From: Loxodes magnus
Taxonomy: Eukaryota; Ciliophora; Karyorelictea; Loxodida; Loxodidae
Direction: 5' to 3'
NCBI GenBank assembly: GCA_946699065.1
Contig: CAMPDV010000022.1
Coordinates: 1,375,501 to 1,439,500, forward strand
DNA length: 64,000 nucleotides
A program made the translations under genes and the position numbers. The notes under the pieces are model-generated. The model worked only from the letters and a program-made list of their open reading frames with translations. It ran no database searches and was not told the DNA's origin. Shown here one piece after another: positions 2,299-64,000 of the stretch (its first letter is position 1; every line of letters starts with the position of its first letter).

Positions 2299-3261
2299 AT
2301 GAAATTAATAATACATATAAAAATTTTTGAACCTATTCTTCAAATTCTGTCTTTGGTAAAAGCATTTAAAAGTTACTAAGAAATAAAAATTCGTAAGGTT
2401 GAATATTTCATATTTTAAGAGCTATTTAGTAATAAAGAAATAAGAGAAAAGCTATTAGCAGTATAAAATAAATTTTAAATAAGAAAAGCAGCTTATATAA
2501 TCAAAAGAAGGTATTAAAAACTATTTAGAGCCATACTTAAGTATAACTAAAATCAATCTTTAAGTATTTATTTATGAGTTAAGGATATTAATTATTAAGA
2601 GCCTATAATCTATTGGCTTGTAGTAATAGTATTAGAGTAAAAATAAAAAGGAGAAGATTATGTAATCTCAGTTCTAAAATTGAAGAGAAAGTATAAGATT
2701 AGCATTCAAGATATAATAGATAAATTTGATTAGAGATGTAATTCTTTATTGTTATAAGGGTAATAACAGTACTGTGATATAATCTGAGATTTATTAAAGT
2801 TCGTTTGAAAAATTAATGAAATAAATATACAATAAGTATTGTTAGATTATAAGCCTTAAAGCTTAAATAATGATAAACTATTAGCTAGTTTGTTATTATT
2901 TATTGGTTCGTTGTTGCATCCTTATCGTTCATATCTGTAATCTGAGTCTGCATATAAATATTTAGCTCTACTATTTAATTTATAAAGGTAGTTAATAAGA
3001 ATATGCAAAACAAATAGATTTGAAAACTATGATGACTTTTGCCTTGAAATAGATTTGATTTAGTTAGTTAGTTCCGAACTAGATATAAATAATTGGATTT
3101 AGTTTGATTTAAATAATTTGTATTAAGTTGCTTATTTTAAAAATGAAGAGAATGATATAGCTGCATTAAATGAATTGCTTAATTAATTAGATATATAACT
3201 CCTTTTTGTTGTTAATGAAATTGATTAGTGTTATTTTATTGTTTTTATAGTGTAAAATTGA
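2299..3261 (+). CDS. Gene A, conserved unrecognised protein, spliced (copy I)
   Basis: The gene is read as join(2299..2737, 2759..3261), about 313 residues with a probable TGA stop at 3259-3261. The product is helical, Leu- and Glu/Asp-rich, with segments such as YCDIIWDLLKFVWK and LLASLLLFIGLLLHPYRSY, and an acidic C-terminus (NEENDIAALNELLNQLDIQL). No family was recognised. Three facts support it as real. The 21-nt GT..AG gap here is 26 nt in copies II and III, yet the downstream frame is the same only if it is spliced out. Several TGA codons fall where copies agree on Trp. The composition is protein-like on one frame only. The start was chosen as the first ATG, conserved in copies I and II. 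It lies divergent from the WD40 gene and upstream of gene B. Confidence 0.65.
2738..2758 (+). other. 21-nt spliceosomal intron in gene A
   Basis: It begins GTAATT and ends TAAG. Removing it joins a split codon to TGG and leaves the frame shared with the 26-nt versions in copies II and III. Confidence 0.6.
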
Positions 3262-4665: not shown

Positions 4666-5344
4666 TTATTATTATATATATATTTTTTTAAAATATTGAT
4701 TTAAATTTCCTTTTCATTAAATACAGCCATGTTTATAAAAGCAAGGTTGAATATTTGCAAAATGATGATAATTAAATTTACCAGTTGTAAAATAATAAAA
4801 ATGAATATAAATTTGTATTTAAGCTTAATAATGTTAGCAAGTATATGGATGTTTACTATATACATTAAAAGTATTAATAATAAGAAAATGTAGAATAAAT
4901 TTATAATTGTAAAGCTATATTTTATTTAATAAATTATTGTATATAAATATTTTTTTATTTAAATATAAAAAGCAATAATTTAAGTTGTTAATACTAATCA
5001 AATATTCAAATATTATCCTTAGTTTAATATCTTATTTTCAATATACAATCCTACCTGTCTCTAGTTTATTCAATCATAGCTTTTAATTTTAGTCTATCAC
5101 TTTTATGCATATTATTATTTTATACATTTCTAGATCAAACTATCAAATTCCTAATTTTTACCTATCATTTTCTTATAACGTATTTATTCCCCAGCAGAAC
5201 CAGCTGATACAAGTATATTAACTAAAGGTGCTAGAGTAACTAAAATAACTAAAATATCTTACTAAAAGTAAGTAAAGCAAATAAGGAGAGTAAAAGCCCT
5301 GTAGAGAGACAAAGAAGAGATAGATTGGGTGATCATGGAAAAGT
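4666..5344. other. AT-rich stretch between gene B and the LSU relic
   Basis: It is conserved in the three units. No coding signal was recognised. Its right end runs without a sharp border into the rRNA-like sequence. Confidence 0.5.
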
Positions 5345-6031
5345 CTTAGCTGATCATAAGGCAAGCTTACTCTTATGTGTACAACTCCAGGTCAATATTT
5401 ATTGGTCTACAAAGGATCTATGCTTTCTGCTTGCATTTTATTACTCGTCTATTCTGTTAACAGAAATGAAGAGAGCTTGGGGATATAAAAAATATTGTTT
5501 TCATAAGTAGATAGAAGGTATCGCTCCCAGATTAGATTCTGACTTAGAGATGTTCAGTCATAATCTATACAGATGATAGCGTAACCAAACGGGCTGTTCA
5601 ACCAATGGCAATACCAGTGATCTGGACCAACGGTTCCTCTCGTAGTGAGTTGGATTATTATGGTGATGCAGTAATCAATACAATAAAATTAAACTGGCTC
5701 ACTATGGTCTAAACTCAGCTCACGTTCTCTTTTGACGGATGAACAATACGACACTTGGTGAATTCAGCTTCACAATGATAGTAAGAACCGACATCGAAGA
5801 ATCAAAAGGCAACTTCACTATGAACACTTGGCTGCCACAAGCCAGTTATTCCTGTGGTAATTTTTCTGACACCTCTGGCTTAAAACTTGTAAAAGGTAAA
5901 GGATCGATAGGCCATGATTTCCCAGTTCATCCTGACAATGAGAGGTTGAGCGAAGCCAGCTTTTCCCCTTTTGGTCTATGAGCGGTTTCTGTCCGCTCTG
6001 AGCTGGCCTTAGGACACCTGTGTTATCTTTT
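5345..6031 (-). pseudogene. Relic of the 3' part of LSU (26/28S) rRNA, copy I
   Basis: The minus strand matches the conserved 3' part of eukaryotic LSU rRNA. Recognisable pieces are the GGCCTATCGATCCTTTA block, the GTTACCACAGGGATAACTGG block (here decayed), the GATGTCGGTTCTT loop, the GTGAACTGAGTTTAGACC block and the AGTACGAGAGGAACCGTTGG sarcin-ricin region. It lacks the rest of the LSU and all other rRNAs, has many substitutions in normally invariant positions, and is embedded in a protein-gene unit. It is therefore a fossil fragment, not a working gene. It is far less AT-rich than its surroundings. Confidence 0.85.
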
Positions 6032-6259
6032 ATTGAAATTAATTTAATAGTTCTGCCCTTAAGTAATAGGAATTATCCCTTTTTATCTATCACTTTAATG
6101 ATTTTAATGATAATCTTATTGAGATACTTCACATATCCCTTATCCTAAATACAATATAAAGTTAGAGACTGATAATTATCTTTACTTATAGTAAATAGTT
6201 TTTAATATTCTCTGGTTATTTTATGAAGGAACGCTTTGCAATTATTAGGCTTTAGTGTA
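6032..6259. other. Leader of gene C
   Basis: This AT-rich stretch is shared with the sister units. Copy II lacks 37 nt here (not a multiple of three) relative to copies I and III. That argues the stretch is non-coding and that gene C starts at or after 6260. Confidence 0.5.
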
Positions 6260-26039: not shown

Positions 26040-26333
26040 TGTAATTATTTCGCTTTTTTATTTTTTAGAGAATTTTCCTGTTTAAATGTTTTGTTCAAAG
26101 TTCTGTTATTTCTTAGAAGCCATTTTATATATAATACTATAATAATAGCAATAACTAATTATAGTGATACCATCTTCAATTAAGTTCCTTACTGGGTAAA
26201 TGACATATTCAGATTTCTCCAAGTATAGTAACAAATATTTTCGATTCAGCATATTAAATCTTTGAAAGATGATCTAAAGAGTAATAAGCAGTTTACAATT
26301 AATTAATTATAAATTTTCAAATTTCTCTTTCGA
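26040..26333. other. AT-rich flank, no gene seen
   Basis: No motif was seen. It separates the ORF1-like region from the GC-rich element. Confidence 0.4.
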
Positions 26334-26600
26334 GGGGCTGGAAACTTCTGCTAGACGACCAATAACACTCTCTTAATTCACACAACGTAGATATCCTGCT
26401 ACTTAATTCAATAAGCTTCGACCTAGGATTCAATAATTGTGAACCAACAGACTTCAAACCGCTAGCAGGAGTGGATAATCGGAAAGATTTTGTTCACATG
26501 TTAAGATTGACTCTAACCAGAGAACTTCTCAGCGAATAGGAACTTGACCTTATCATAAGATTAGAAATTTTTATCAGAAAATTAATCTATGCTACAGCCA
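26334..26600 (+). mobile_element. GC-rich structured SINE-like element, diverged copy
   Basis: It aligns with 55930-56224 in blocks: a 5' hairpin, ACGACC, AACACTC, GATATCCTG, a hairpin region, GCTTCGACC, AGGAGTGGATAATC, a GTTGACTC-like block and a CCATCTT..TTAATT end. It has an additional segment after CTTCGACC. It is clearly richer in GC than its flanks. GCTTCGACC resembles a pol III B box. No target duplication was recognised around this copy. Confidence 0.55.
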
Positions 26601-29495
26601 TCTTATTAATTATGGTATTTTTAATAATTAGTGTATATTTTAAATATAACTATACATATCATATAAAAATTTTAAAATTACATATTTTTAATTTTTCTAT
26701 TATTTAACAAGACTAAAAGATATGAACTTGAAGATAAATGAAGTTTGTTAAATAAATCTATTATAATGGTATAATTCTTATTTCTAGATTAACTTACTAA
26801 ATAATAAGTCTTCTTGTAGCATTGCATCTATATCTTTTGGAATTGGAATTTTTAGAGATTTACTGTTATATTAGTGCCCTAAATTCTTGCACAAGTTGAA
26901 TTAATTTCTTATAAATAGTTTGTTTTATAGTTTGTATGAAAATATTTTGCTTTTAAACTATAATTTCACCTTATGACAGTTTATCTTATAAAAAAGTAGT
27001 TTTTTAAGAGTTAAGTTTGATGTTAAAATAATGTAGGAATTTTAGAGTTTGAGACACGTTGAATACATATAATGTGTAAAATATAAATAAAATAGATGAG
27101 TAATAAATAATGACTATTTATAATTAGAAAATGAATAGGAAAATGTTTGAATTGAATTAGTTGATCTTTTAAATTGAAATAAATGATTAATGTTTTTAAA
27201 ATTGATATTAAATAAAATATTTGAAATATTATTATGTATATGCATTTTGTATAGATATAATAGTAATAGCTTTAACTTACACTTAGTATATCTTAATAAA
27301 TTAAAAAAGCTTTAGTTTTAATGTTTTAGATATAATGAATATGATATTAATTTGTTAATTACTTTTATTTTGCTAATATGCATTATATTAGAATATCATT
27401 TTTATTATTACTAAGTATAAAGATACTTAGATATATTTAAATAATTTAAATAATTTGGTAGCAAATGTTTGTTATATGTTATAACTTTTGATTCTTAAAG
27501 CAACTTTAATAAAGGTTTGATTGCAAATTCTAATTTGATGTATAAATGTTCTACAGTAGATATATATTAAATGATGATTATAGATTTATAGAGTTATATA
27601 TATTGATTGTAGTGTATATAAGATTGTAAGTTTAATTATTTGTAGGTTGTTATATTTTATTATATTAAGACTATTATAGATAAAGAAAATTAAATGGTAC
27701 AAACTTAGATTATCTTTTTTATAATATAATTATGAATATTCTTTCATAATAATGTTTTTAAATAAAATAAATAAATAGTTTGATTTAATCTCAAAATACT
27801 ATTTTTTAAATTTAGAACAACTTAGCTTTTACATGTGTAACCATGCTATATAATTAATTTAGTATTTAGAAACTTTAGTAAAAATGTATTTTTCTTTATT
27901 TATTTAAAACTATTTAATATTTTAGTAAAATTTAAAATAATTAAAAATTTAATCTTATATTCCCTTATTATTTATGCCTATAAATAGATTATTTATTCTT
28001 TTATCAAAAAATATACTCTTTTAAATTAGCTTAATCACTAATTTTTTTAATATTTATCAATCTATTTATTAAATTTTATTTATTTAATATTCAAACTTTC
28101 ATTATAGCTATTCATTATCAAATATTATTTATTATCTTATTATATTTCAAATATTACAGAAACTTTTTATTTAGACAATATCTTTTGCTTTAAAACCTTA
28201 TTTTTTTATAAATTAAACTAAATTATGTACATTTTTTAGAATCCTAAAAGTTGGTTGTTAAAAATTAAATTTAGAATAAGTTTTAATTTTTTTGTTTTTG
28301 ACATTATTTTATATGTTATATTTTGAAAGTTCATTGAAACAAAAATCAAGCTTGTTTTATTAATTTTACTAAAAATATAATTTATAGCATTTTAAATTAA
28401 AATACAAATGGAGTTTCCTTTAGGATTACTTTGTGTAATTTTCCTTTATACATTTAATATAAATTTATTATAGAAATTTTGTAACTTATTTTACGATATT
28501 TTTAAATTTTTGAGTTAGAAGTATTTAGGAATAATGTTAACTGTATTAATGAAATATGATTAAACTTAAGTTTATTAAAATTAAATTTTGCTCTTCATAG
28601 TGACAAATATAACTTGAATTTAAATAAAATATTCTATTTGATAAATAAATAAATTATCTAAAATATTAAAATTATTTTAATATAATATATAAAGTATTTA
28701 ATAATCTCTTAGATATCATGTAAAATTATTTATATTTCATTTAAACAAATATCAATTATTTCAAACTATTTATCATTTTAAATCTATTTCCAAAATTTAT
28801 ATCAATAACTATTATATTATCAACAGTTCCTTCTACTTCTCATTTATTTCAAACTCTATTTCTTATTTTTTTATTTATTGCTTACGTCAAATTTAATCAT
28901 CAAATTATTTTATACTTATTCACTATAGGAGAACAACTAAATATACTAACAAATTCAATTTTACTTTAAGTATAAGGGAGAACTATATTAATTATTTACA
29001 TATTATTATTATATTTGGCTAACTTATTATAATTCTATATTATACCTATGTGTAGATTTATGCTTACCCCATTTCAGATCTATTTGCATTTATAGTTTTT
29101 TTTAATTCATTTTTTAAAACATTCCAATACTTTCAAACTTCTATTCTATTTTTCCTTTTATAGATATTAAAAAAATTTTATTTATTCTATCCAAAAATCT
29201 TTGCTAGATAAATCGCTGAGCATAAAATGGTCTAAATAATGTTTGTAATTTTATTAATATTTATTATAATGTTATCCGAACTACAAATCTTAAAATCTTT
29301 TAATACCAAACAATATTAAGGCCTTTAAAATTACTAAGAAGTATAAAAATAAAATATACCTTCAATACAAAATTAACTAATCCTTTTAAACTTTATAACA
29401 AATCTAATATCAAATATATACTTTTTATCTACTTTTAATCATTCAAAAATTAAACCTTATAAATTTAATTAGTCTTCAATAAATTTATTACTCGA
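26601..29495. other. AT-rich desert
   Basis: About 2.9 kb of almost pure A+T with long T/A runs. No protein-like frame, repeat copy or structured block was seen on either strand. Confidence 0.6.
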
Positions 29496-39043: not shown

Positions 39044-40011
39044 ATGAAATTAATAATACATATAGAAATTTTTGAACCTATTCTTAAAACTTTGTCTTCG
39101 GTAAAAGCATTTAAAAGTTACTAAGAAATAAAAATTCGTAAGGTTGAATATTTCATATTTTAAGAGCTATTTAGTAATAAAGAAATAAGAGAAAAGCTAT
39201 TAGCAGTATAAAAGGAATTTTAAATAGGAAAAGCAGCTTATATAATCAAAAGAAGGTATTAAAAACTATTTAGAGCCATACTTAAGTATAACTAAAATCA
39301 ATCTTTAAGTATTTATTTATGAGTTAAGGTTATTAATTATTAAGAGCCTATAATCTATTGGCTTGTAATAATAGTATTAGAGTAAAAATAAAAAGGAGAA
39401 GATTATGTAATCTCAGTTCTAAAATTGAAGAGAAAGTATAAGATTAGCATTCAAGATATAATAGACAAATTTGATTAGAGATGTAATTCTTTATTTTTAT
39501 TAAGTGAGGGTAATAAAAATACTGTGATATAATCTGAGATTTATTAAAGTTCGTTTGAAAAATGAATGAAATAGACATACAATAAGTATTGATAGATTAT
39601 AAGCCTTAAAGCTTAAATAATGATAAACTATTAGCTAGTTTGTTATTATTTATTGGTTTGTTGTTGCATCCTTATCGTTCATATCTGTAATCTGAGTCTG
39701 CATATAAATATTTAGCTCTACTATTTAATTTATAAAGGTAGTTAATAAGAATATGCAAAACAAATAGATTTGAAAACTATGATGACTTTTGCCTTGAAAT
39801 AGATTTGATTTAGTTAGTTAGTTCCGAACTAGATATAAATAATTGGATTTAGTTTGATTTAAATAATTTGTATTAAGTTGCTTATTTTAAAAATGAAGAG
39901 AATGATATAGCTGCATTAAATGAATTGCTTAATTAATTAGATATATAACTTCTTTTTGTTGTTAATGAAATTGATTAGTGTTATTTTATTGTTTTTATAG
40001 TGTAAAATTGA
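39044..40011 (+). CDS. Gene A, spliced (copy II)
   Basis: It is read as join(39044..39482, 39509..40011), with exons of the same lengths as in copy I (439 and 503 nt) and a 26-nt intron ending GTGAG. The protein differs from copy I by a few substitutions, for example MNEID for INEIN after the WK pair. The probable stop is TGA at 40009-40011. Confidence 0.65.
39483..39508 (+). other. 26-nt intron in gene A, copy II
   Basis: It starts GTAATT and ends GTGAG. It is 5 nt longer than in copy I while the exons are the same length. Confidence 0.6.
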
Positions 40012-41410: not shown

Positions 41411-42068
41411 TATTATAAAGGATTTATTTTAAAAACATTGATTTAAATTTCCTTTTCATTAAATACAGCCATTTTTATAAAAGCAAGGTTAATATTTGCA
41501 AAATGATGATAATTAAATTTGCCAGCTGTAAAATAATAAAAATGAATATAAATTTGTATTTAAGCTTAATAATGTTAGCAAGTATATGGATGTTTACTAT
41601 ATACATTAAAAGTATTAATAATAAGAAAATGTAGAATACATTTATAATTGTAAAGCTATATTTTATTTAATAAATTATTGTATATAAATATTTTTTTATT
41701 TAAATATAAAAAGCAATAATTTAAGTTGTTAATACTAATCAAATATTCAAATATTATCCTTAGTTTAATATCTTATTTTCAATATACAATCCTACCTATA
41801 TCTAGTTTATTCAATCATAGCTTTTAATTTTAGTCTATCACTTTTATGCATATTTTATACATTTCTAGATCAAACTATCCAATTCCTAATTTTTACCTAT
41901 CATTTTCTTATAACTCATTTATTCCCCAGCAGAACCAGCTGATACAAGTATATTAACTAAAGGTGCTAGATTAACTAAAATAACTAAAGTATCTTACTAA
42001 AAGTAAGTAAAGCAAATAAGGCGAGTAAAAGCTGCGTAGAGAGATAGATCAGGTAATCATGGAAAAGT

Positions 42069-42790
42069 CTTAGTAGATCATAAGGCAAGCTTACTCTTAT
42101 GTGTACAACCCCATGTCAATGTTTATTGGTCTACAAAGGATCTATGCTTTCTGCTTGCATGTGATTACTCGTTCTATTCTGTTAACAGAAATGAGGAGAG
42201 CTTGGGGATATAAAAATATTGTTTTCATAAGTAGATAGAAGGCATCGCTTCCACTTAGATTCTGACTTAGAGACGTTCAGTCATAATCTATACAGATGGT
42301 AGCGTAACCAAAAGGCTGTCCAACCAATGGCGATACTAGTGATCTGGACCAACGGTTCCTCTCGTACTGAGTTGGATTATTATGGCGATGCAGTAATCAA
42401 TACAGTAAAATTAAACTGGCTCATTACGGTCTAAACCCAACTCACGTTCTCTTTTGACGGATAAACAATACAACACTTGGGGAATTCAGTTTCACAATGA
42501 TAGGAAGAACCGACATCGAAGAATCAAAAGGCAACGGCGCTATGAACGCTTGGCTGCCACAAGCCAGTTATCCCTGTGGTAATTTTTCTGACACCTCTGG
42601 CTTAAAACTCGTAAAAGGTAAAGAATCGATAGGCCATAATTTCCCAGTTCATCCTGACATGAGAGGTTGAATAAAGCCAGCTTTTCTCCTTTTGGTTTGT
42701 GAGCAGTTTCTGTCCCATCGAGTTAGCCGTAGGACACCTGTGTTATCTTTTAACAGATATGCCGCCCCAGTCAAACTCTCTACCTGGCGG
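42069..42790 (-). pseudogene. LSU rRNA 3' relic, copy II
   Basis: It resembles copy I but extends further upstream on the rRNA sense strand, to the CAGGTAGAGAGTTTGACTGG and GGCGGCATATCTGTTAAA blocks. LSU identity ends at CCGCCAGG, where the GC-rich element takes over instead of the normal LSU sequence. The segment includes the helix closing the peptidyl-transferase region but not the PTC strand itself. Confidence 0.85.
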
Positions 42791-42977
42791 TTTCTCCCAT
42801 CCATTTGCATTGCTAGAAAGTTTCTGTATCCGCTCTTGGTAGGGGTTTGAAGCCTGGCTGCTCATAGCGATGGAGCTCCCTAGCAGCTGTGCCTGGAGCA
42901 CAGCAGATATCCCCGTTATTCCATAAAAAGAAAGCGTTGGGTCATACAATCGGAAAGAGTTTCCGGTCCATAAACTT
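42791..42977 (-). mobile_element. GC-rich structured element fused to the LSU relic, copy II
   Basis: On the minus strand it reads a 5' hairpin (CGGAAACTCTTTCCG), TGACCCAACGC, GGAATAACGGGGATATC, a hairpin (GCTGTGC..GCACAGC), GGGAGCTCCATCGCTAT, GCAGCCAGGCTTCAAACCCC, TACCAAGAGCGGATA. The same order of blocks occurs at 55930-56224 with different but still pairing hairpin arms. It is truncated on its 3' side by the join to LSU sequence. Short open frames across it are shadows. Confidence 0.6.
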
Positions 42978-43173
42978 TTTTAGTTGAAATTAATTTAATA
43001 GTTCTACACTTACGTAATAGGAATTATCCCTTTTTATCTATCACTTTAATGATTTTAATGATAATCTTATTGAGATACTTCACATATCCCTTATCCTAAA
43101 TACACTAAATAGTTTTTAATATTCTCTGGTTATTTTATGAAGGAACGCTTTACAATTATTAGGCTTTAGTGTA

Positions 43174-43848
43174 ATGATGCTATGGTTTCTACATTTTAAC
43201 TTTTATTAAAGCTTATAAATATCTTTCAAACATCTCTTACAATTGATTGGCATTCTAACTTGTTAGGCCTTTGAGCTCTTGATGAAACAGTTGTTGACAT
43301 AATTAAGACTTAGCAGATTGAGATTTTATTTGAATCTAGTAAAAATAAGTTTAATATTATTCACATAGATAACTACTATTTAAACTGAAGGAAATAAAAG
43401 TAGCTTAATTAACTATAATAGGCTATTTATTAGTTAAGATATAATTAATAGTTACTTTTAAAATTATACCATTAATGCAAGAAATTTCCCTCTAATTTGT
43501 TATTTACTTATACAAACTTAGTTTGCAAACATGTACATAGAAACTGATAAAGAGAAGAGCAAGATTATTTAAAAATAGTACCATATGCTTAGAATTATAA
43601 TAAATCCTTAAATGCTTTAACTATATCTTACAGATTTTAGAAGCTAAGTATTTAATAACCTCAACATTACAAATATCCAATTAGACTAGCCTATCAAATT
43701 TATTACCAAGTACTTTCTAACCTAGAATTCATGCTTAGTTTTATAATTTATACTCCATATATCAAGAGGATAAGTTAGAAGAGATATTTAATTATTGTAT
43801 TTTCTTATTTGAGATAGAGTAGTAAGAAAGATATTTGAGAGCTTTTAG
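43174..43848 (+). CDS. Gene C (copy II)
   Basis: It has the same 675-nt frame as copy I, with TAG-TAA at its end. The leader before it is 37 nt shorter than in copies I and III, which places that indel outside the coding region. Confidence 0.55.
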
Positions 43849-44034
43849 TAATTTAAAATTAAAAAAAACAGATAAGAGGAGACAAGGAATGGAAATAGTC
43901 TTAGAGCTCAGCCTTTAAATCCTTATCTCTACCTTTCTTTATTAGTAACACTCTATTTGAGATAATAAGATATTTAATTATTTTACATAGCAGATAAACT
44001 TTCCTCTCTACTTTCCTTAAAATTCTACATATCC

Positions 44035-46850
44035 TTTTCGTATATTAAAATCCATGGTGCATATTTTCTCTACTTTAATCGTTTTATATTCCTTTTCAAG
44101 TGTCGTTTAAGTTTCTTTAATTAATTTCATCTAGGAAAATATTTAATTGATTTTTTCTATCTTTTTTTTTGATGCAGTCTACATTTTCTCCTTGCTTCTT
44201 ATCTCATTTTAATATAATTATAAATTTATTAGCATCCTTATCTAATTAGATATTTACTTATTTCACCTTCTATTGGAAATTTTTTCTAGTTTTATTATTT
44301 CTGCTGTATATAGTATTTTATCATTTAATTTGTCGCAAATCCACATATCGCTTTGGTCACTTCTTGGACGTATTCTGATTATTTTTCATAGTATGCTTCG
44401 CTATCTAAAGTTTCAAATTCGCTAAAATCTATTTTCTTCTATCATTCTTTGAATCTCTCTTGAACCTTTTATTGTTTTAATTTTTTAAAGTTTATCCTTT
44501 TAATTTATGGGCTTTTTCGATATTCTTCCGCAATTTTTAACTTTATTTTACCAGACTAATGATCTCTTATTTGTCGCTATTGTTAGAATTTTGTGCTGAT
44601 AATGTTAGGCTTGATATATTGATCCATTAAGAAGCAATCTATTTTCAATTTTCCTTTTCCATATTTTGTGATGAAGGTTTAACCTCGCTTTGGATCTTTA
44701 CATTCTAAAAGATAATATTTCATCAAGTTAAATAAGTATTAGCCTGCATTATTATGCTCATACGATAAAAATTGGGAAATATGCGCATTAAAATATTCTA
44801 ATATTAAAATTTATAATCCTCTGCTGTTTGTTGCTATTATGTATTATTATTGATTTTCATAAAAGATATTAGTTAATCAGAGTCGGATGTTGTAGTGCTA
44901 TCTACTTTTATCAATGATAGTTGATCATCAAGTGTTAAACCTATTAATCTTCCTCTAAAATAATTCTGCTTGATTGAGATCCGCTATATCTAACACTTTG
45001 GTTCTGCGGGTGATTCCATCTTTTATATAAAATGCGACTCTTTTGCAATATTTTGTGGTCAATTTTATTATTACTCTAAATCCGTATATATAAGGTATTT
45101 CATCAGTTTGATCTTAAATATTTCTTAAATCACCATAATTTCTATCTTATTTTTACACATAAAATTGTTTAATTCTTGTTTTATTTTATTCATCTGACAT
45201 TTGCTGTACCTATGTTTAATTCTGTCTATTTTATTATATTAATATTTCCTTGCATTTCCTATTTTTCATGATCCTCCTACCCTGCATTTTTAGCTTCCTC
45301 TTCTTTAATAGCATGAAAACCAAACATTCTAATGTTTATTATTTTTCTGTACTTATATCTTCAAGTATTTACTCGATTCTATCTTCCATGCCATTATATT
45401 TTTTTCTATCCTTTTTTGAGACAGCGATGTGTTTATGCATATTTCTTTTCTGTCACTGTTTTCTAGTTGTTTCATTTTTTTTTCATATTTCCTATTTTAC
45501 TTTCTGTTTTTTGTGACATTGATAATTTCGTCTCAATTTTATTTATTTAATTTTGTAGTTAAGTATCGATTAAAGTCAATCGCTTTTTAAGCAACTTTAG
45601 TATGGCTTAAACTTGTTGCTTTTAATAGAAGTTCAAAGTAGCATTTTATTTGAAGGTTAACCTTCTTCCGTTTTCTTCACTTTCTTTTCCTTCGCTATCT
45701 GTTTCTCTTTATAGTAAGGCATTTTATTCCTGTTTATTCCTGATTTCCGAATGCATCAAACTGATTTTTACTTCCTTAGCATTTTTAATTGCTTCCTTTA
45801 TAGCTTTTTTTCTTAAGCATTAATTTGAGCTGAGCCCTTTTTGGTTACAACTCATACATTTTCAAATTGATGATTAGCGATACAACGATACGTGTATGGG
45901 ATTTCCAGAATGACTCAAGTAAGTGCTTATACCTCCTTCATCTAAATTATCTGGTGTATTTTCTGCATCTTTGCTCTCCTTCAATTCTAAATAATTCTCA
46001 TTTTCCCATTGGCTCACGTTATACCTTTTACGGTTCCATTCTCTGAACATATTATTTTTCCGTACTACTATAGATGGGTTTCTACCTGGTCAAACTTGAA
46101 TATATGTTAAAAGTTCAATGAATCGGGTCTTTCTTAATGTTGTAGAATTCCTCTATGTTTCTTTACTTTTTTGGTATTAAAAAATTTCTAAACTTTCATA
46201 CTAATTATTTCCGGATTGTGTGAGTGTTTCCTTATTTTTGAATCACATAATAATTGTTCCTTTCTGAAGGATTTTCATACTCTCAATACTTTTATCATGT
46301 TCTTATTTCAGATATCTGAGAAATGCTTGAATGATTTCATTTTCTTGCATTTCTGCTGGACTGAGTATTTGGCTGTAGTAATTTTTATTCTAAAAATTGA
46401 TTGAAACAGGTAACTCCTACTCTTTTAACAGTTTTTAGCTGCATATTCTCCTCCTCATTTTATGGAATTTATTCGTTCTTTCCTTCTTCCATTATAATGA
46501 TTTGCACAGAGCTGTGGTTTGAGTTGATGTTCTAAATTATCTACTTTTTTTGATAGGCTATTTAGATTTTAGATTTCTATCCTTTTTTTTCTGCATTACT
46601 TTTAGTAGTTATAATATTTTGCGATAGAGAAATTTTACTTAAAAATAATATCAAAAATCTGAATAAATTGTAAAGCTCTTTCATGCCTTTATTAAATTTA
46701 ATAACCAATCTCGATCCAAAATTGGCATTATGCAGAATGTAAGATAGCTACTTGATATAATAGCCTAATATTGTACTTTTAAATAAATAATGCTAAATAA
46801 AGTAATAATGTAATATTTGATATTTTTACTTAATTTTTGATGGTAACTGT
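44035..46850 (-). mobile_element. LINE-A (copy II)
   Basis: It holds ORF1 plus endonuclease as in copy I and is visually identical to 60995-63800. The coiled-coil N-terminus is readable here as NSLSKKVDNLEHQLKPQL. The frame is broken in several places. Confidence 0.7.
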
Positions 46851-46894
46851 TATAAATTACCTTTATAGCTTTTGTAGTCTAAATAATAATAAAA

Positions 46895-48289
46895 ATGTAA
46901 GCGTTACCAAAATGCTTAATCTGCTTAGAAGATTACAACTTAACTAATGCTCTTCCAACTGTCTTACCTTGTGGACATATTTACTGTGGTTTGTGTTTGA
47001 ATACTGAGTACTGATTATAAGGCATAATGTAATGTCCTATTTGTTAAAAAGGATTCCATTTTAGATTTGATGATTTACCTTAAGAAAGTGATTTAATAAG
47101 AATGATATTTTAAAACTAATAATACATATAAAAGATTTAAGATGCTAGATAGAAATTAAAAGAGATAAGGAGGTAAATTATGGAAAAATCTAAAACCATT
47201 ACAACCAAATAATCAAACATTAGTAATACTCTCATAATACCACTAACTAATATCATCATCAATCATTAACCAACATTTATCTACCAAAAATAACACTCAA
47301 ATATTATCTAATTCTACTAATCACTAAAACCAACTATACTCTAATATAACTCATAACCACCTACAATACTAAAGTCTAAATTAACTTACAATCTAATAAG
47401 ATACAAACTATAACACAATACTAAGTAACCAAATATTATTTAGACTAATTAACATAAACTAAGCTAGCACTTTATATAATCTAACTATATTCACTTTTTT
47501 AATTGAGATATTTAAAAATTAAGTTTATTTAATATTTAAACAGAGTAATTACGATAAGTCTAAGTTTAAATTATAACTTCATACTATAGTAAAAGTATAG
47601 AATATTAAAATAAGTTATATTTAATTGGAGGATATAACTAAAATTAAAATAAAGGAATAAAAGAAACTTGATAATTTGATTTTGAAGGTAATAGAATAAA
47701 ACTTAGTGATCTAAATGAGGGAAGAGGTGACTTTGGAATAGCAGCTGCTTAAAAATATGTTTATGTGGTTGGAGGAATTACTAGTAATAATCAAGTTTTA
47801 TAATCAGTAGAAAAGTTAAAGATGGAAAACTAAAGTAAATGATAAAACTGTTATTAATTTCCATTCAAAATAGCTGAATAAACTTTAGTAGTAGATAAAG
47901 ATGAATAAAATATTTATTCTTTTGGAGGTGGAAATTAGAAATTCTAAACTTTAAAAGATATATGAAAATATAACATATAGAATGATAGATGGAGTAAGTA
48001 AAATTTGAGTCTTCCTGAAGCTGTTCTTAAGCCTATAGTTTCTTTAGAGCCTTTTGTCATATTTGGAGGTATGAAAAATGCATTTACGAAAGAATATTCA
48101 AGAAGAATATATAAAAGAAGCAAAGAATAATGATAATAAAGCTAAATTTTTAAAGATGTTGGAGCTTTAACGGAGATGAAAATAAGAAATAACTATGGAT
48201 ATGTTTTTGCTTACGAATAGCCAAGAGTTTCAATAATGAGGATTGATTTAGAAAAATTGAGTTATAGAAGTATTAAAAGTCATAACTGA
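46895..48289 (+). CDS. RING finger-kelch protein (copy 4)
   Basis: The frame is 464 codons plus TGA at 48287-48289. Kelch-half differences include GITSNNQVLQ, GGGNQKF for GGANQKG and AVLKPIVSLEP. The RING half is nearly unchanged. Confidence 0.88.
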
Positions 48290-53589: not shown

Positions 53590-54300
53590 TCTTCTACTTT
53601 CTAACTGTCTTGTCATTAGCTTTAGATTTTAACCACTTATTATTTCTACTCAAAACCACAGTATTTACTTTATCTGTATGATCTTATAAAGTACATACAC
53701 ATTCACCCTATGAGAAATTCCGTTTCTCAATAAGTTTACCCTGATTTCCTGATGTTATGAACTTATTATCCTTAATTATTAACACTTCACATAACAATTT
53801 TTTGATACTGTTCTTATACATTATCCTGTAAAGAAATTCTCTATCTTAAATGATTTATCACCAGATCCAGTTACTATAAAGTTATTATCATTTGATAGCA
53901 CTATAGATTATACATAATCTGAATGGTCAATTAAAGTTCTCGTACAATTTCCAGTCTGGAAATCCCAGATTTTTATCGTTTCATCGTCAGATGCTGAAGT
54001 TGATAATTTCTGATATTTTTCTATTACTATCGATCTATTGTAATCCATCTGTCCATTCAAAGTTCTCGAACATCTTCCAGTCTGGAAATCCCAGATCTTT
54101 ATCGTTTTGTTTCCACTTCCCGATATAGATCATTTCTGATCTTTTGCTATTACTACCGAGTTAACTGCAAACGAATGTCCGGTCAAATTTTAGTCTAAAA
54201 TATTAAAGAATTACTTTTAGATTAGTCGTAGATAATTTTATTTTCAACTTTTAAAATGCTCAAGTTTGGCAGGATTTCATATTTAAAAAGAAGAAAATAT
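53590..54300 (-). CDS. WD40-repeat protein (unit copy III)
   Basis: It resembles copy II but has one extra repeat of 126 bp at 53941-54066 (SASDDETIKIWDFQTG). Downstream repeats read NDNNFIVTGSGDKSFKI and NKWLKSKANDKTVRK. The repeats keep their relative frame across the extra unit. The N-terminus shows the same unexplained frame change before the first repeat as the other versions. Confidence 0.68.
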
Positions 54301-55631: not shown

Positions 55632-55929
55632 CTGAAATTAATAATACATATAGAAGTTTTTAAACCTATTCTTCAAACTTTGTCTTCGGTAAAAGCATTT
55701 AAAAGTTACTAAGAAATAAAAATTCGTAAGGTTGAATATTTAATATTTTAAGAGCTATTTAGTAATAAAGAAATAAGAGAAAAGCTATTAGCAGTATAAA
55801 AGGAATTTTAAATAAGAAAAGCAGCTTCTATAATCAAAAGAAGGTATTAAAAACTATTTAGAGCCATACTTAAGTATAACTAAAATCAATCTTTAAGTAT
55901 TTATTTATGAGTTAAGGATATTAATTATT

Positions 55930-56224
55930 AATTAATTTTAAACTAAAAGAGTTTTAAACTGCAATTTCTTGCAGTTTAACGACCCCAACACTCCCTTCAT
56001 GGGATAACGGGGATATCCTGTTGCTTTCGAAAAGCAGCTGCCAGGGAGCTCCATCGCTATAGGCAGCCAGGCTTCGACCCCTACCAGGAGTGGATAATCA
56101 AAAGGAAGGCATTCCCTTGCAAAGGTTGACTTTCTTAGCGACAGGAAAGGAACTTGTTCCTAGCCATAAAACCAGAAAGTATGATTCAGAAGGTCAATCT
56201 CAGCTCCATCCATCTTTTTAATTA
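55930..56224 (+). mobile_element. GC-rich structured SINE-like element with 18-bp target duplication
   Basis: TTAAGGATATTAATTATT flanks it on both sides (55912-55929 and 56225-56242), and gene A copies I and II are uninterrupted there. Inside are a 5' hairpin (AAACTGCAA..TTGCAGTTT), ACGACCCCAACACTCCC, GGGATAACGGGGATATCC, a hairpin around TGCTTTCGAAAAGCAG, GGGAGCTCCATCGCTAT, GGCTTCGACCCCTACCAGG and GTTGACTTTC. The element ends CCATCTTTTTAATT. GCTTCGACCCC resembles a pol III B box. This is the most complete copy. Confidence 0.75.
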
Positions 56225-56383
56225 TTAAGGATATTAATTATTAAGAGTCTATAATCTATTGGCTTGTAATAATAGTATTAGAGTAAAAATAAAAAGGAGA
56301 AGATTATGTAATCTCAGTTCTAAAATTGAAGAGATAGTATAATATTAGCATTCAAGATATAATAGACAAATTTGATTAGAGAT

Positions 56384-58320: not shown

Positions 58321-58987
58321 GGATTTATTTTAAAAATATTGATTTAAACTTCCTTTTCATTAAATACAACCATTTTTATAAAAGCAAGGTTGAATATTTG
58401 CAAAATGATGATAATTAAATTTGCCAGTTGTAAAATAATAAAAATGAATATAAATTTGTATTTAAGCTTAATAATGTTAGCAAGTATATGGATGTTTACT
58501 ATATACATTAAAAGTATTAATAATAAGAAAATGTAGAATACATTTATAATTGTAAAGCTATATTTTATTTAATAAATTATTGTATATAAATATTTTTTTA
58601 TTTAAATATAAAAAGCAATAATTTAAGTTGTTAATACTAATCAAATATTTAAATATTATCCTTAGTTTAATATCTTATTTTCAATATACAATCGTACCTG
58701 TCTCTAGTTTATTCAATCATAGCTTTTAATTTTAGTCTATCACTTTTATGCATATTATTATTTTATAAATTTCTAGATCAAACAATCCAATTCCTAATTT
58801 TTACCTATCATTTTCTTATAACTCATTTATTCCCCAGCAGAACCAGCTGATACAAGTATATTAACTAAAGGTACTAGAGTAACTAAAATAACTAAAGTAT
58901 CTTACTAAAAGTAAGTAAAGCAAATAAGGAGAGTAAAAGCCCTGTAGAGAGATAAAGAAGAGATAGATAGGGTAATCATGGAAAAGT

Positions 58988-59710
58988 CTTAGCAAATCAT
59001 AAGTCAAGCTTACTCTCATACGTACAACCCCAGGCCAATACTTAGTGGTCTACAAAGGATCTATCCTATCTGCTTGCATGTGATTAGTCGTTCTATTCTG
59101 TTAACAGAAATGAGGAGAGCTTGGGGATATAAAAATATTGTTTTCATAAGTAGATAGAAGGCATCGCTTCCACTTAGATTCTGACTTAGAGACGTTCAGT
59201 CATAATCTATACAGATGGTAGCGTAGCCAAACGGGCTGTTCAACCAATGGCGATACCAGAGATCTGGACCAACGGTTCCTCTCGTATTGAGTTTTATTAC
59301 TATGGCGATGCAGTGATCAATACAGTAAAAATATAACGGGTTCGCTACGTTCTAAACCCAGTTCACGTTCTCTTTTGACGGATGAACAATATGACACTTG
59401 GTGAATTCAGCTTCACAATTATAGGAAGAACCGACATCGAAGAATCAAAAGGCAACGGCGCTATGAACGCTTGGCTGCCACAAGCCAGTTATCCTGTGGT
59501 AATTTTTCTGACACCTCTGGCTTAAAACTCGTAAAAGGTAAAGAATCGATAGGCCATAATTTCCCAGTTCATCCTGACATGAGAGGTTGAATAAAGCCAG
59601 CTTTTCTCCTTTTGGTTTGTGAGCAGTTTCTGTCCCATCGAGTTAGCCGTAGGACACCTGTGTTATCTTTTAACAGATATGCCGCCCCAGTCAAACTCTC
59701 TACCTGGCGG
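58988..59710 (-). pseudogene. LSU rRNA 3' relic, copy III
   Basis: It is the same fragment as in copy II. It carries private substitutions in the part nearest the LSU 3' end (58990-59340) and is almost identical to copy II further on. Confidence 0.85.
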
Positions 59711-59897
59711 TTTCTCCCATCCATTTGCATTGCTAGAAAGTTTCTGTATCCGCTCTTGGTAGGGGTTTGAAGCCTGGCTGCTCATAGCGATGGAGCTCCC
59801 TAGCAGCTGTGCCTGGAGCACAGCAGATATCCCCGTTATTCCATAAAAAGAAAGCGTTGGGTCATACAATCGGAAAGAGTTTCCGGTCCATAAACTT
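59711..59897 (-). mobile_element. GC-rich structured element fused to the LSU relic, copy III
   Basis: It is identical to 42791-42977 by eye, including the truncated border with the LSU sequence. Confidence 0.6.
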
Positions 59898-60129
59898 TTT
59901 TAGTTGAAATTAATTTAATAGTTCTGCACTTACGAAATAGGAATTATCCCTTTTTATTATCACTTTAATAATTTTAATGATAATCTTATTGAGATACTTC
60001 ACATATCCCTTATCCTAAATACAATATAAAGTTAGAGACTGATAATTATCTTTACTTATACTAAATAGTTTTTAATATTCTCTGGTTATTTTATGAAGGA
60101 ACGCTTTGCAATTATTAGGCTTTAGTGTA

Positions 60130-60804
60130 ATGATGCTATGGTTTCTACATTTTAACTTTTATTAAAGCTTATAAATATCTTTCAAACATCTCTTACAATT
60201 GATTGGCATTCTAACTTGTTAGGCCTTTGAGCTCTTGATGAAACAGTTGTTGACATAATTAAGACTTAGCAGATTGAGATTTTATTTGAATCTAGTAAAA
60301 ATAAGTTTAATATTATTCACATAGATAACTACTATTTAAACTGAAGGAAATAAAAGTAGCTTAATTAACTATAATAGGCTATTTATTAGTTAAGATATAA
60401 TTAATAGTTACTTTTAAAATTATACCATTAATGCAAGAAATTTCCCTCTAATTTGTTATTTACTTATACAAACTTAGTTTGCAAACATGTACATAGAAAC
60501 TGATAAAGAGAAGAGCAAGATTATTTAAAAATAGTACCATATGCTTAGAATTATAATAAATCCTTAAATGCTTTAACTATATCTTACAGATTTTAGAAGC
60601 TAAGTATTTAATAACCTCAACATTACAAATATCCAATTAGACTAGCCTATCAAATTTATTACCAAGTACTTTCTAACCTAGAATTCATGCTTAGTTTTAT
60701 AATTTATACTCCATATATCAAGAGGATAAGTTAGAAGAGATATTTAATTATTGTATTTTCTTATTTGAGATAGAGTAGTAAGAAAGATATTTGAGAGCTT
60801 TTAG
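60130..60804 (+). CDS. Gene C (copy III)
   Basis: It has the same 675-nt frame as copies I and II, followed by TAA. Confidence 0.55.
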
Positions 60805-60994
60805 TAATTTAAAATTAAAAAAAACAGATAAGAGGAGACAAGGAATGGAAATAGTCTTAGAGCTCAGCCTTTAAATCCTTATCTCTAGCTTTCTTTATTA
60901 GTAACACTCTATTTGAGATAATAAGATATTTAATTATTTTACATAGCAGATAAACTTTCCTCTCTACTTTCCTTAAAATTCTACATATCCTTTT

Positions 60995-63800
60995 CGTATA
61001 TTAAAATCCATGGTGCATATTTTCTCTACTTTAATCGTTTTATATTCCTTTTCAAGTGTCGTTTAAGTTTCTTTAATTAATTTCATCTAGGAAAATATTT
61101 AATTGATTTTTTCTATCTTTTTTTTTGATGCAGTCTACATTTTCTCCTTGCTTCTTATCTCATTTTAATATAATTATAAATTTATTAGCATCCTTATCTA
61201 ATTAGATATTTACTTATTTCACCTTCTATTGGAAATTTTTTCTAGTTTTATTATTTCTGCTGTATATAGTATTTTATCATTTAATTTGTCGCAAATCCAC
61301 ATATCGCTTTGGTCACTTCTTGGACGTATTCTGATTATTTTTCATAGTATGCTTCGCTATCTAAAGTTTCAAATTCGCTAAAATCTATTTTCTTCTATCA
61401 TTCTTTGAATCTCTCTTGAACCTTTTATTGTTTTAATTTTTTAAAGTTTATCCTTTTAATTTATGGGCTTTTTCGATATTCTTCCGCAATTTTTAACTTT
61501 ATTTTACCAGACTAATGATCTCTTATTTGTCGCTATTGTTAGAATTTTGTGCTGATAATGTTAGGCTTGATATATTGATCCATTAAGAAGCAATCTATTT
61601 TCAATTTTCCTTTTCCATATTTTGTGATGAAGGTTTAACCTCGCTTTGGATCTTTACATTCTAAAAGATAATATTTCATCAAGTTAAATAAGTATTAGCC
61701 TGCATTATTATGCTCATACGATAAAAATTGGGAAATATGCGCATTAAAATATTCTAATATTAAAATTTATAATCCTCTGCTGTTTGTTGCTATTATGTAT
61801 TATTATTGATTTTCATAAAAGATATTAGTTAATCAGAGTCGGATGTTGTAGTGCTATCTACTTTTATCAATGATAGTTGATCATCAAGTGTTAAACCTAT
61901 TAATCTTCCTCTAAAATAATTCTGCTTGATTGAGATCCGCTATATCTAACACTTTGGTTCTGCGGGTGATTCCATCTTTTATATAAAATGCGACTCTTTT
62001 GCAATATTTTGTGGTCAATTTTATTATTACTCTAAATCCGTATATATAAGGTATTTCATCAGTTTGATCTTAAATATTTCTTAAATCACCATAATTTCTA
62101 TCTTATTTTTACACATAAAATTGTTTAATTCTTGTTTTATTTTATTCATCTGACATTTGCTGTACCTATGTTTAATTCTGTCTATTTTATTATATTAATA
62201 TTTCCTTGCATTTCCTATTTTTCATGATCCTCCTACCCTGCATTTTTAGCTTCCTCTTCTTTAATAGCATGAAAACCAAACATTCTAATGTTTATTATTT
62301 TTCTGTACTTATATCTTCAAGTATTTACTCGATTCTATCTTCCATGCCATTATATTTTTTTCTATCCTTTTTTGAGACAGCGATGTGTTTATGCATATTT
62401 CTTTTCTGTCACTGTTTTCTAGTTGTTTCATTTTTTTTTCATATTTCCTATTTTACTTTCTGTTTTTTGTGACATTGATAATTTCGTCTCAATTTTATTT
62501 ATTTAATTTTGTAGTTAAGTATCGATTAAAGTCAATCGCTTTTTAAGCAACTTTAGTATGGCTTAAACTTGTTGCTTTTAATAGAAGTTCAAAGTAGCAT
62601 TTTATTTGAAGGTTAACCTTCTTCCGTTTTCTTCACTTTCTTTTCCTTCGCTATCTGTTTCTCTTTATAGTAAGGCATTTTATTCCTGTTTATTCCTGAT
62701 TTCCGAATGCATCAAACTGATTTTTACTTCCTTAGCATTTTTAATTGCTTCCTTTATAGCTTTTTTTCTTAAGCATTAATTTGAGCTGAGCCCTTTTTGG
62801 TTACAACTCATACATTTTCAAATTGATGATTAGCGATACAACGATACGTGTATGGGATTTCCAGAATGACTCAAGTAAGTGCTTATACCTCCTTCATCTA
62901 AATTATCTGGTGTATTTTCTGCATCTTTGCTCTCCTTCAATTCTAAATAATTCTCATTTTCCCATTGGCTCACGTTATACCTTTTACGGTTCCATTCTCT
63001 GAACATATTATTTTTCCGTACTACTATAGATGGGTTTCTACCTGGTCAAACTTGAATATATGTTAAAAGTTCAATGAATCGGGTCTTTCTTAATGTTGTA
63101 GAATTCCTCTATGTTTCTTTACTTTTTTGGTATTAAAAAATTTCTAAACTTTCATACTAATTATTTCCGGATTGTGTGAGTGTTTCCTTATTTTTGAATC
63201 ACATAATAATTGTTCCTTTCTGAAGGATTTTCATACTCTCAATACTTTTATCATGTTCTTATTTCAGATATCTGAGAAATGCTTGAATGATTTCATTTTC
63301 TTGCATTTCTGCTGGACTGAGTATTTGGCTGTAGTAATTTTTATTCTAAAAATTGATTGAAACAGGTAACTCCTACTCTTTTAACAGTTTTTAGCTGCAT
63401 ATTCTCCTCCTCATTTTATGGAATTTATTCGTTCTTTCCTTCTTCCATTATAATGATTTGCACAGAGCTGTGGTTTGAGTTGATGTTCTAAATTATCTAC
63501 TTTTTTTGATAGGCTATTTAGATTTTAGATTTCTATCCTTTTTTTTCTGCATTACTTTTAGTAGTTATAATATTTTGCGATAGAGAAATTTTACTTAAAA
63601 ATAATATCAAAAATCTGAATAAATTGTAAAGCTCTTTCATGCCTTTATTAAATTTAATAACCAATCTCGATCCAAAATTGGCATTATGCAGAATGTAAGA
63701 TAGCTACTTGATATAATAGCCTAATATTGTACTTTTAAATAAATAATGCTAAATAAAGTAATAATGTAATATTTGATATTTTTACTTAATTTTTGATGGT
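60995..63800 (-). mobile_element. LINE-A (copy III)
   Basis: It is visually identical to 44035-46850. Confidence 0.7.
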
Positions 63801-63850
63801 AACTGTTATAAATTACCTTTATAGCTTTTGTAGTCTAAATAATAATAAAA

Positions 63851-64000
63851 ATGTAAGCGTTACCAAAATGCTTAATCTGCTTAGAAGATTACAACTTAAC
63901 TAATGCTCTTCCAACTGTCTTACCTTGTGGACATATTTACTGTGGTTTGTGTTTGAATACTGAGTACTGATTATAAGGCATAATGTAATGTCCTATTTGT
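63851..64000 (+). CDS. RING finger-kelch protein (copy 5, cut by window end)
   Basis: The start codon and the RING finger up to its last cysteine pair are present and identical to the other copies. The linker and kelch part lie beyond the window. Confidence 0.85.

What the first reader, a model, noticed from the sequence alone, without database searches (positions are those of the whole stretch)
55930..56224. GC-rich structured mobile RNA-like element with pairing-preserving changes
Four copies share block order but differ in sequence. In two diverged versions the arms of at least two hairpins differ yet still pair: AAACTGCAA/TTGCAGTTT versus CGGAAA/TTTCCG at the 5' end, and GCTTT/AAAGC versus GCTGTGC/GCACAGC inside. 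This looks like covariation in a functional RNA. The copy in gene A has an 18-bp target duplication, so it moves, probably by LINE machinery. It does not look like tRNA, 5S, 7SL or a group I or II intron to me, but has a B-box-like motif. It may be an undescribed SINE or small RNA.
Basis: partly seen in the sequence, partly recalled or inferred. Interest (0 to 1): 0.75.

Follow-up and report, generated by a model that had tools for sequence, protein, structure and literature searches.

The report
Jumping structured RNA in a ciliate
A roughly 290-base structured RNA gene of unknown kind appears to have been copied around the genome of what looks like a ciliate by reverse transcription, once fused to a piece of ribosomal RNA; it resembles known short parasitic retroelements, but its RNA matched no catalogued family.

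Summary
The observation mostly holds. C1 (55932-56224, 293 bp) is a real insertion: it is flanked by an exact 20-bp duplication, and duplicated units at 2.6 and 39.3 kb keep the empty site. C4 (26301-26639) is a decayed full-length relative. C2 (42993-42827) and C3 (about 59913-59747) are one event copied by segmental duplication (190 of 190 bases identical). The 5' half keeps a fold: C1 against C2 gives 7 double-sided compensatory changes and no broken pair in 38, reached by 0 of 1000 and 1 of 500 column shuffles. The B-box is chance-level. Rfam gives C1 and C4 nothing beyond weak, chance-level matches. WD40 pseudogenes suggest TAA/TAG=Q and TGA=W, so probably a karyorelict-type ciliate. Best reading: a SINE-like retroposon moved by LINE enzymes, with C2/C3 as a template-switch chimera. 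Whether the RNA is also a host gene is open.

The parts
55932..56224 (+). C1, full-length and least decayed copy of the element (293 bp), inserted in the third duplicated unit
   Evidence: bounded by the 20-bp repeat; absent from the two paralogous units; nhmmer E 1e-92 (profile includes it)
55912..55931 (.). 5' copy of the target-site duplication TTAAGGATATTAATTATTAA
   Evidence: single copy in the empty sites
56225..56244 (.). 3' copy of the target-site duplication
2567..2614 (.). empty (pre-insertion) site in unit 1
39312..39359 (.). empty (pre-insertion) site in unit 2 (one base differs in the target)
55959..55974 (+). 5' hairpin of C1 (CTGCAA/TTGCAG core); in C2 CGGAAA/TTTCCG, 2 of 6 pairs changed on both sides, none broken
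55989..56092 (+). conserved 5' domain of C1: closing stem P1 (55989-55994/56087-56092), TGG/CCA, GGGG/CCCC, hairpin H1 (56020-56027/56031-56038), H2 (56039-56042/56062-56065)
56123..56200 (+). 3' domain of C1 with long-range helix AGGTTGAC/GTCAATCT; C1 and C4 only, weakly supported (18 of 300 shuffles)
42827..42993 (-). C2, 5' half of the element, immediately 5' of an LSU rRNA fragment (unit 2)
   Evidence: homology to C1 5' half z 24.9, 0 of 300 shuffles
42047..42788 (-). LSU rRNA domain V-VI fragment fused to C2; clear from GCCAGG (42788); 3' end estimated from the unit 1 match
   Evidence: Rfam RF02543, 430.1 bits over 42150-43150
59747..59913 (-). C3, segmental-duplication copy of C2 (unit 3; 5' limit estimated)
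   Evidence: 190 of 190 bases identical to C2; nhmmer 59915-59747
58966..59708 (-). LSU rRNA domain V-VI fragment fused to C3 (limits estimated from unit 2)
   Evidence: Rfam RF02543, 416.4 bits over 59069-60069
5322..6042 (-). LSU rRNA fragment of unit 1 (three Rfam pieces), lacking its 5' part and the C2-equivalent by deletion
26301..26639 (+). C4, older decayed copy, full length (homologous to both halves of C1)
   Evidence: nhmmer E 1.5e-90 (profile includes it); 5' half z 11.9, 3' half z 9.3, 0 of 300 shuffles each

Best explanation
The finding is a SINE-like retroposon. SHOWN: a 293-bp unit inserted at 55931/56225 and duplicated 20 bp of target; a decayed full-length relative exists; the 5' half is also found fused to LSU rRNA; the 5' half keeps a secondary structure (closing stem, inner GGGG/CCCC helix, two hairpins, plus a separate 5' hairpin) through compensatory changes. 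INFERRED: the unit is transcribed as a structured non-coding RNA, reverse-transcribed at a nicked target (target-primed reverse transcription) and inserted by the enzymes of a LINE. In C2/C3 the reverse transcriptase began on LSU rRNA, copied about 740 bases of its 3' end and switched template into the element RNA, giving element-5'-half + LSU in sense. A later segmental duplication copied this join. The compensatory differences between C1 and C2 arose in transcribed source copies, so structure mattered to those sources, either for mobilisation (SINE master copies) or because the RNA is also a host gene.
For: 20-bp exact duplication and two empty sites; that length fits target-primed reverse transcription better than common DNA transposons (recalled knowledge). 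C1, C2/C3 and C4 begin with similar AT-rich sequence containing TTAATT, though only C1's start is fixed by a duplication. C1 and C4 share the 3' end CCATCTTWTTAATTA. Compensation: 0 of 1000 and 1 of 500 shuffles reach 7 double changes, no broken pair in 38. A 33-pair structure named from C1 has 86.7% of cells paired, against 35-52% when slid, and 9 pairs with double changes, against at most 2 when slid. The sense fold has 7 double and 7 one-sided (G.U-type) changes in 38 pairs, the antisense fold 6 double and 0 one-sided in 30. The C1 3' half is not LSU (z -0.1, 141 of 300 shuffles as high), so C2 is a join of two sequences. Loxodes magnus, which uses a matching code, carries about 2,700 RVT_1 and 1,200 Exo_endo_phos_2 domains, and compelling DNA transposons were not detected there (PMC11441545 passages). 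Mammalian LINE-1 makes chimeras with U6, U3 and 28S rRNA that are mostly in sense (PMC13174262 passages).
Against: No poly(A) or clear simple-repeat tail; C1 ends TTTTTAATTA. No LINE sequence in the parts scanned, which are a minor part of the window. A- and B-box motifs occur in 86.1% and 74.7% of 1000 shuffles. C2 alone does not fold better than its shuffles (z -0.22, 77 of 200); C4 is only z -1.48 (9 of 100). In one search one of five measures is not above its shuffles (further pair types, 151 of 500), and near-duplicate C2/C3 rows count twice. No target duplication adjoins C2 or C4 (the best flank match at C2 is 15 of 17 bases but lies away from both ends). C4's 3' half has a trace of similarity to C2+LSU (12 of 300 shuffles as high). 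The antisense fold also beats shuffles (1 of 500 on energy, 6 of 500 on double changes), so the transcribed strand is likely, not proven. Partner LINE, transcript and copy number are unknown.
Confidence: 0.58

Rival explanations
1. Retropseudogenes of an unidentified, conserved host non-coding RNA (not a self-propagating SINE lineage). The functional gene lies elsewhere, drifts with compensatory changes, and its transcript is occasionally captured by LINE reverse transcriptase, alone (C1, C4) or by template switch (C2/C3).
For: Compensatory changes and a strongly conserved ~60-nt core between C1 and C2, CAGCTGCYAGGGAGCTCCATCGCTAT..GCAGCCAGGCTTC, look like selection on a functional RNA. Snapshots of one slowly changing gene would look just like this.
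Against: Three independent insertions in 64 kb suggest a high copy number, though the window is not a random sample. C1 and C2 differ at 36 aligned columns of 151, a lot for one conserved housekeeping gene. No Rfam match beyond chance for C1 or C4.
Confidence: 0.27
2. The 5' half is itself part of LSU rRNA: a very divergent L1-stalk or domain V entrance region of this organism, or a local LSU expansion. C2/C3 are then plain rDNA fragments, and C1/C4 are mobile pieces of rRNA joined to something else.
For: In C2 and C3 the element abuts LSU about where the L1 stalk should lie (position of the stalk recalled); the archaeal LSU match reaches into it (42871). C4's 3' half shows a trace of similarity to C2+LSU (12 of 300 shuffles as high).
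Against: Rfam's eukaryotic LSU model aligns around the element as an insertion of more than 100 nt and matches confidently only from about GCCAGG on. C1 and C4 alone give no LSU match up to E 10. C1 and C4 continue into a shared 3' half that, for C1, is not LSU (141 of 300 shuffles as high against C2+LSU, 117 of 300 against LSU alone).
Confidence: 0.08
3. A small DNA-mediated element (MITE or similar) with AT-rich ends, whose hairpins are DNA palindromes.
For: Ends TTAATT... and ...AATTA are loosely inverted; the inverted repeats exist on both strands and the antisense fold also beats shuffles.
Against: The 20-bp duplication is far longer than usual for DNA transposons (recalled knowledge). 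Sense-specific G.U-type changes (7 against 0). The C2 fusion to rRNA points to an RNA intermediate. Compelling DNA transposons were not detected in Loxodes magnus (PMC11441545 passages), if that is the relevant kin.
Confidence: 0.05

Closest known systems
SINEs (mostly tRNA-, 5S- or 7SL-headed retroposons mobilised by LINEs)
   Same: Short (293 bp), no ORF of 150 aa in the window under table 11, long target duplication with empty sites, structured RNA-like 5' part, copies of different decay. That SINE heads mostly come from small RNA genes and 3' parts usually from LINEs is from the abstract start of PMC7245038 (listing).
   Different: Head matches no Rfam family beyond chance and no tRNA was found in the window; internal pol III boxes are not above chance; no identified partner LINE tail.
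Chimeric LINE insertions (U6, U3, 5S or 28S rRNA joined to LINE-1), described for mammals in PMC13174262 (passages)
   Same: C2/C3: two unrelated RNAs joined in the sense direction, the upstream one a partial structured RNA, the downstream one 5'-truncated.
   Different: Here both partners are non-coding and LSU rRNA is the downstream (primary) template rather than a LINE; no duplication around C2 was found.
rRNA-derived SINEs (existence recalled; 5S and 28S named as SINE sources in PMC13174262 passages)
   Same: Mobile sequence associated with LSU rRNA.
   Different: The mobile unit C1 itself has no detectable rRNA; rRNA occurs only in the C2/C3 join.
Loxodes magnus interspersed repeats (915 families, mostly unclassified; PMC11441545 section 8)
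   Same: Matching genetic code (passage) and retrotransposon-rich genome (passages).
   Different: The word SINE does not occur in that main text; whether this element is among the 915 families could not be checked, and the identity of the window's organism is inferred.
SINEs annotated in the ciliate Cryptocaryon irritans (0.10% of the genome; PMC8790277, one passage)
   Same: SINEs reported in a ciliate genome.
   Different: The passage gives a repeat-annotation percentage only, with no family, sequence or structure to compare.

Membership tests
SINE | target-site duplication with clean empty site | tested here: met
   20 bp, two empty paralogous sites; for C1 only, none found for C2 or C4
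SINE | several copies with common ends, no coding capacity | tested here: met
   three independent copies with similar AT-rich 5' starts, C1/C4 with a common 3' end; no ORF of 150 aa under table 11. Under code 6 the longest window frame is 490 codons, simulated maxima 411 to 578; frames over 150 codons 213 against a simulated mean of 178.6 (whole window)
SINE | internal RNA polymerase III promoter (A and B boxes) | tested here: inconclusive
   B-like box at the homologous place in C1, C2 and C4 with 1 mismatch, but 74.7% of shuffles of C1 contain one; A-like box 86.1%, and not at the homologous place in C4
SINE | head derived from tRNA, 5S or 7SL RNA | tested here: not met
   ARAGORN 0 tRNAs; no Rfam match to C1 or C4 beyond chance. 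A feature of most, not all, SINEs
SINE | 3' tail shared with a partner LINE | not testable with these tools
   no genome of this organism is held
Chimeric retro-insertion by template switch (C2/C3) | two unrelated RNAs joined in sense, downstream RNA running to its 3' end | tested here: met
   element 5' half then LSU; the LSU 3' end is inferred from the unit 1 match to model position 3399 of 3401 and the unit alignment
Chimeric retro-insertion by template switch (C2/C3) | target duplication around the whole join | tested here: inconclusive
   no shared word of 8 to 12 bases between the two flanks compared; no empty site known
LSU rRNA expansion segment | match to an LSU model at the homologous place | tested here: not met
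   treated as insertion by the eukaryotic model; none for C1 or C4. The archaeal model reaches into C2 to 42871
Functional structured ncRNA | covariation above background | tested here: met
   (5' domain only; the 3' domain at 18 of 300)
Functional structured ncRNA | transcript | not testable with these tools
   no RNA data available

The most novel reading that the evidence does not exclude
An undescribed structured non-coding RNA class, unrelated to tRNA, 5S and 7SL, that serves as the head of a SINE family in a ciliate of karyorelict type, a lineage whose studied member does not extensively edit its genome between nuclei. It may still have a host function, and it recombines with rRNA during reverse transcription.
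Probability: 0.3. Interest if true: 0.6.

Novelty: new member of a known kind. Interest (0 to 1): 0.4.

Why it matters
SINEs have at least been annotated in one other ciliate (Cryptocaryon irritans, 0.10% of the genome; PMC8790277, one passage), so SINEs in ciliates are not new as such. For Loxodes + SINE, and for micronuclear genome + ciliate + SINEs + LINEs, the paper library returned no paper. Of 37 papers holding 'ciliate' and 'SINEs', 20 were listed and only the Cryptocaryon paper was a ciliate genome by its title (I looked into two further listed papers, PMC13174262 and PMC12133305, for other points). If this is a SINE, it sits in a group whose studied member lacks extensive somatic removal of mobile DNA, so copies would be present in the expressed genome. 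Compensatory evolution inside a mobile RNA would show that a fold, not only a sequence, is needed for mobilisation or host use. The LSU join would extend RNA-RNA chimera formation during LINE reverse transcription beyond the mammals studied in PMC13174262.

Tried and rejected
Known RNA families (group I/II introns, tRNA, 5S, 7SL, RNase P/MRP, U RNAs): no Rfam hit for C1 or C4 beyond chance. C1 has one match up to E 10: E 8.4, antisense, a Neisseria sRNA. C4 has two: E 0.51 (antisense, a worm snoRNA) and E 7.5. ARAGORN found no tRNA in the window.

LSU origin of the 3' half of C1/C4: MAFFT had lined it up with LSU, but shuffles show no homology for C1 (141 of 300 as high) and at most a trace for C4 (12 of 300; 16 of 300 against LSU alone).

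Telomerase RNA (CCCCAAC in C1): dropped. The motif is not kept in C2 or C4, and none of five telomere-type repeat words occurs in the window.

Pol III promoter argument: dropped after the shuffle control.

Plain base-composition decay as cause of the LSU divergence between units: not enough, since unit 3 has 10 GC>AT, 10 AT>GC and 5 other changes there.

Searches for more copies: exact core patterns gave 0 matches in genome contigs and 0 in viral contigs; megablast in E. coli genomes 0. These collections are of prokaryotes and viruses, so this says little.

Protein-domain scans of two 5-kb stretches in six frames: no hit up to E 0.01.

Full report
WHERE. The window is about 25% GC with no ORF of 150 aa or more under table 11. 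Decayed WD40-repeat genes at 29.5-30.2, 37.2-37.6 and 53.7-54.2 kb (minus strand) stay in frame if TAA and TAG are read as Gln. In them TGA stands where Trp is expected, as in HTN-TGA-VRSV, K-TGA-IISA and INI-TGA-NFQTG. Pfam finds WD40 repeats in two of three read-through minus-strand frames at 50.6-54.4 kb (WD40 58.6 bits, cut-off 27, in the better one). All three stops read as sense fits the karyorelict code (table 27), stated for Loxodes in PMC11441545 (passage); Condylostoma-type codes are not excluded (recalled). The organism is therefore inferred, not identified. The window contains large duplicated units: 43101-47044 and 60057-64000 are 99.9% identical, other long pairs about 83-98%.

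THE COPIES. C1 (55932-56224) is absent from the two paralogous units, which carry the 20-bp target once. C4 (26301-26639) is homologous to C1 over both halves (z 11.9 and 9.3; 0 of 300 shuffles each). C2 is homologous to C1 only up to GGATA (42827; z 24.9, 0 of 300) and identical to C3 over 190 of 190 bases. C2 and C3 lie in duplicated units, so they are one event. A profile search of the window (profile from C1, C2 and C4) finds no fifth copy; the weaker rows have E 0.082 and 9.6.

THE rRNA JOIN. Rfam finds LSU rRNA on the minus strand at 42173-42871 and 59092-59798 (archaeal model best at that setting) and, in three pieces, at 5322-6042 (eukaryotic model). Over 42150-43150 the eukaryotic LSU model scores 430.1 bits, with a confident match from about GCCAGG (42788) and the element placed as an insertion; the unit 3 equivalent scores 416.4 bits. 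The unit 1 match runs to model position 3399 of 3401, so the fragment reaches about the LSU 3' end. The 3' half of C1 is unrelated to LSU (141 of 300 shuffles as high); for C4 a trace remains (12 of 300). Hence C2 is best read as element-5'-half + LSU, both in sense. Unit 1 lacks this junction by a deletion of somewhat over 200 bp.

STRUCTURE. On the C1/C2 alignment (36 substituted columns of 151) RNAalifold gives -36.3 kcal/mol with 38 pairs: 24 unchanged, 7 changed on both sides, 7 on one side, 0 broken. Column shuffles that keep gap and identity classes give -17.4 +/- 3.4 and 1.7 double changes. None of 1000 reached the energy or 7 double changes; in another run 0 of 500 reached the energy and 1 of 500 the 7 changes. 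With other cuts of the 5' half, the four rows, the pair C1+C2, and C1+C2+C4 each gave 0 of 300. A named 33-pair structure has 86.7% of cells paired and 9 pairs with double changes. Sliding it by 1-3 columns gives 35-52% and at most 2. Of its five shuffle measures two have 0 of 500 (cells with double changes, covariation score), the percentage paired also 0, pairs with double changes 4, and further pair types 151 (C2 and C3 are near-duplicate rows there, and helix 7 is scored also on unrelated LSU columns). The structure was derived from C1 and from the C1/C2 consensus, which favours it; the column shuffles refold each time and so allow for that. Against: C2 alone folds no better than shuffles (z -0.22), C4 z -1.48; C1 has z -3.37. 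The 3' half on C1+C4 gives 18 of 300. The antisense fold also beats shuffles (1 of 500 on energy), with 6 double and no one-sided changes in 30 pairs.

WHAT IT IS NOT. C1 and C4 match no Rfam family beyond chance. The A and B boxes are at chance level. ARAGORN finds no tRNA in the window.

MECHANISM. The long duplication, and the fusion of the element to an rRNA piece, suggest an RNA intermediate and target-primed reverse transcription. PMC11441545 (passages) reports about 2,700 RVT_1 and 1,200 Exo_endo_phos_2 domains in Loxodes magnus, two families that appear to be complete LINEs, and no compelling DNA transposon homologs. PMC13174262 (passages) reports chimeras of LINE-1 with U6, U3 and 28S rRNA, biased to sense, attributed to template switching or RNA ligation. 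I commit to SINE-like retroposition with a template-switch chimera (0.58), with retropseudogenes of an unknown host RNA as main rival (0.27). The two differ only in where the source copies live, which a genome-wide census would settle. Three independent insertions in 64 kb, if typical, would mean thousands in a genome of hundreds of Mb; this is an extrapolation from a window that was not chosen at random. No LINE domain was seen in the parts scanned.

NOVELTY. Library searches for Loxodes + SINE and for micronuclear genome + ciliate + SINEs + LINEs returned 0 papers, and SINE does not occur in the main text of PMC11441545. But SINEs are annotated in the ciliate Cryptocaryon irritans at 0.10% of the genome (PMC8790277, one passage). 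In PMC3464196 on Paramecium the word refers to a sine wave (passages). One search listed 20 of 37 papers with 'ciliate' and 'SINEs', and searches listed 15 of 75 and 3 of 3; most of these I did not open. The library lacks most subscription papers, and the 915 repeat families of L. magnus (section 8) may include this element.

Noticed in passing
29520-30182, 37153-37607, 53666-54192 (minus): Decayed WD40-repeat genes with TAA/TAG at Gln and TGA at Trp positions: apparently a genetic code with all three stops reassigned.
   Followed up: partly
42047-42788, 58966-59708, 5322-6042 (minus): LSU fragments carry more unit-specific changes than the 3' flank: unit 1 36 of 691 against 47 of 1598 columns, unit 2 12 against 5, unit 3 25 against 9. 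Between units 2 and 3 it is patchy: identical over about 300 columns, but 87.8% and 86.3% in two 150-column windows, with flanks 96.5-100%; between units 1 and 2 some flank windows are as low as 90.5%. Unit 3's changes go both ways (10 GC>AT, 10 AT>GC, 5 other). Might be gene conversion from other LSU copies.
   Followed up: partly
about 42365 (minus) and equivalents in units 1 and 3: The sarcin-ricin loop motif AGTACGAGAGG (motif recalled) is intact only in unit 2; units 1 and 3 read ACTACGAGAGG and AATACGAGAGG, so these LSU fragments are probably not functional rRNA.
   Followed up: no
6028-6032: Unit 1 has lost somewhat over 200 bp covering the C2-equivalent and the LSU 5' part.
   Followed up: no
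43101-47044 and 60057-64000: Nearly identical (99.9%) copies about 17 kb apart beside other long pairs that are about 83-98% alike: recent segmental duplication or sequence homogenisation.
   Followed up: no
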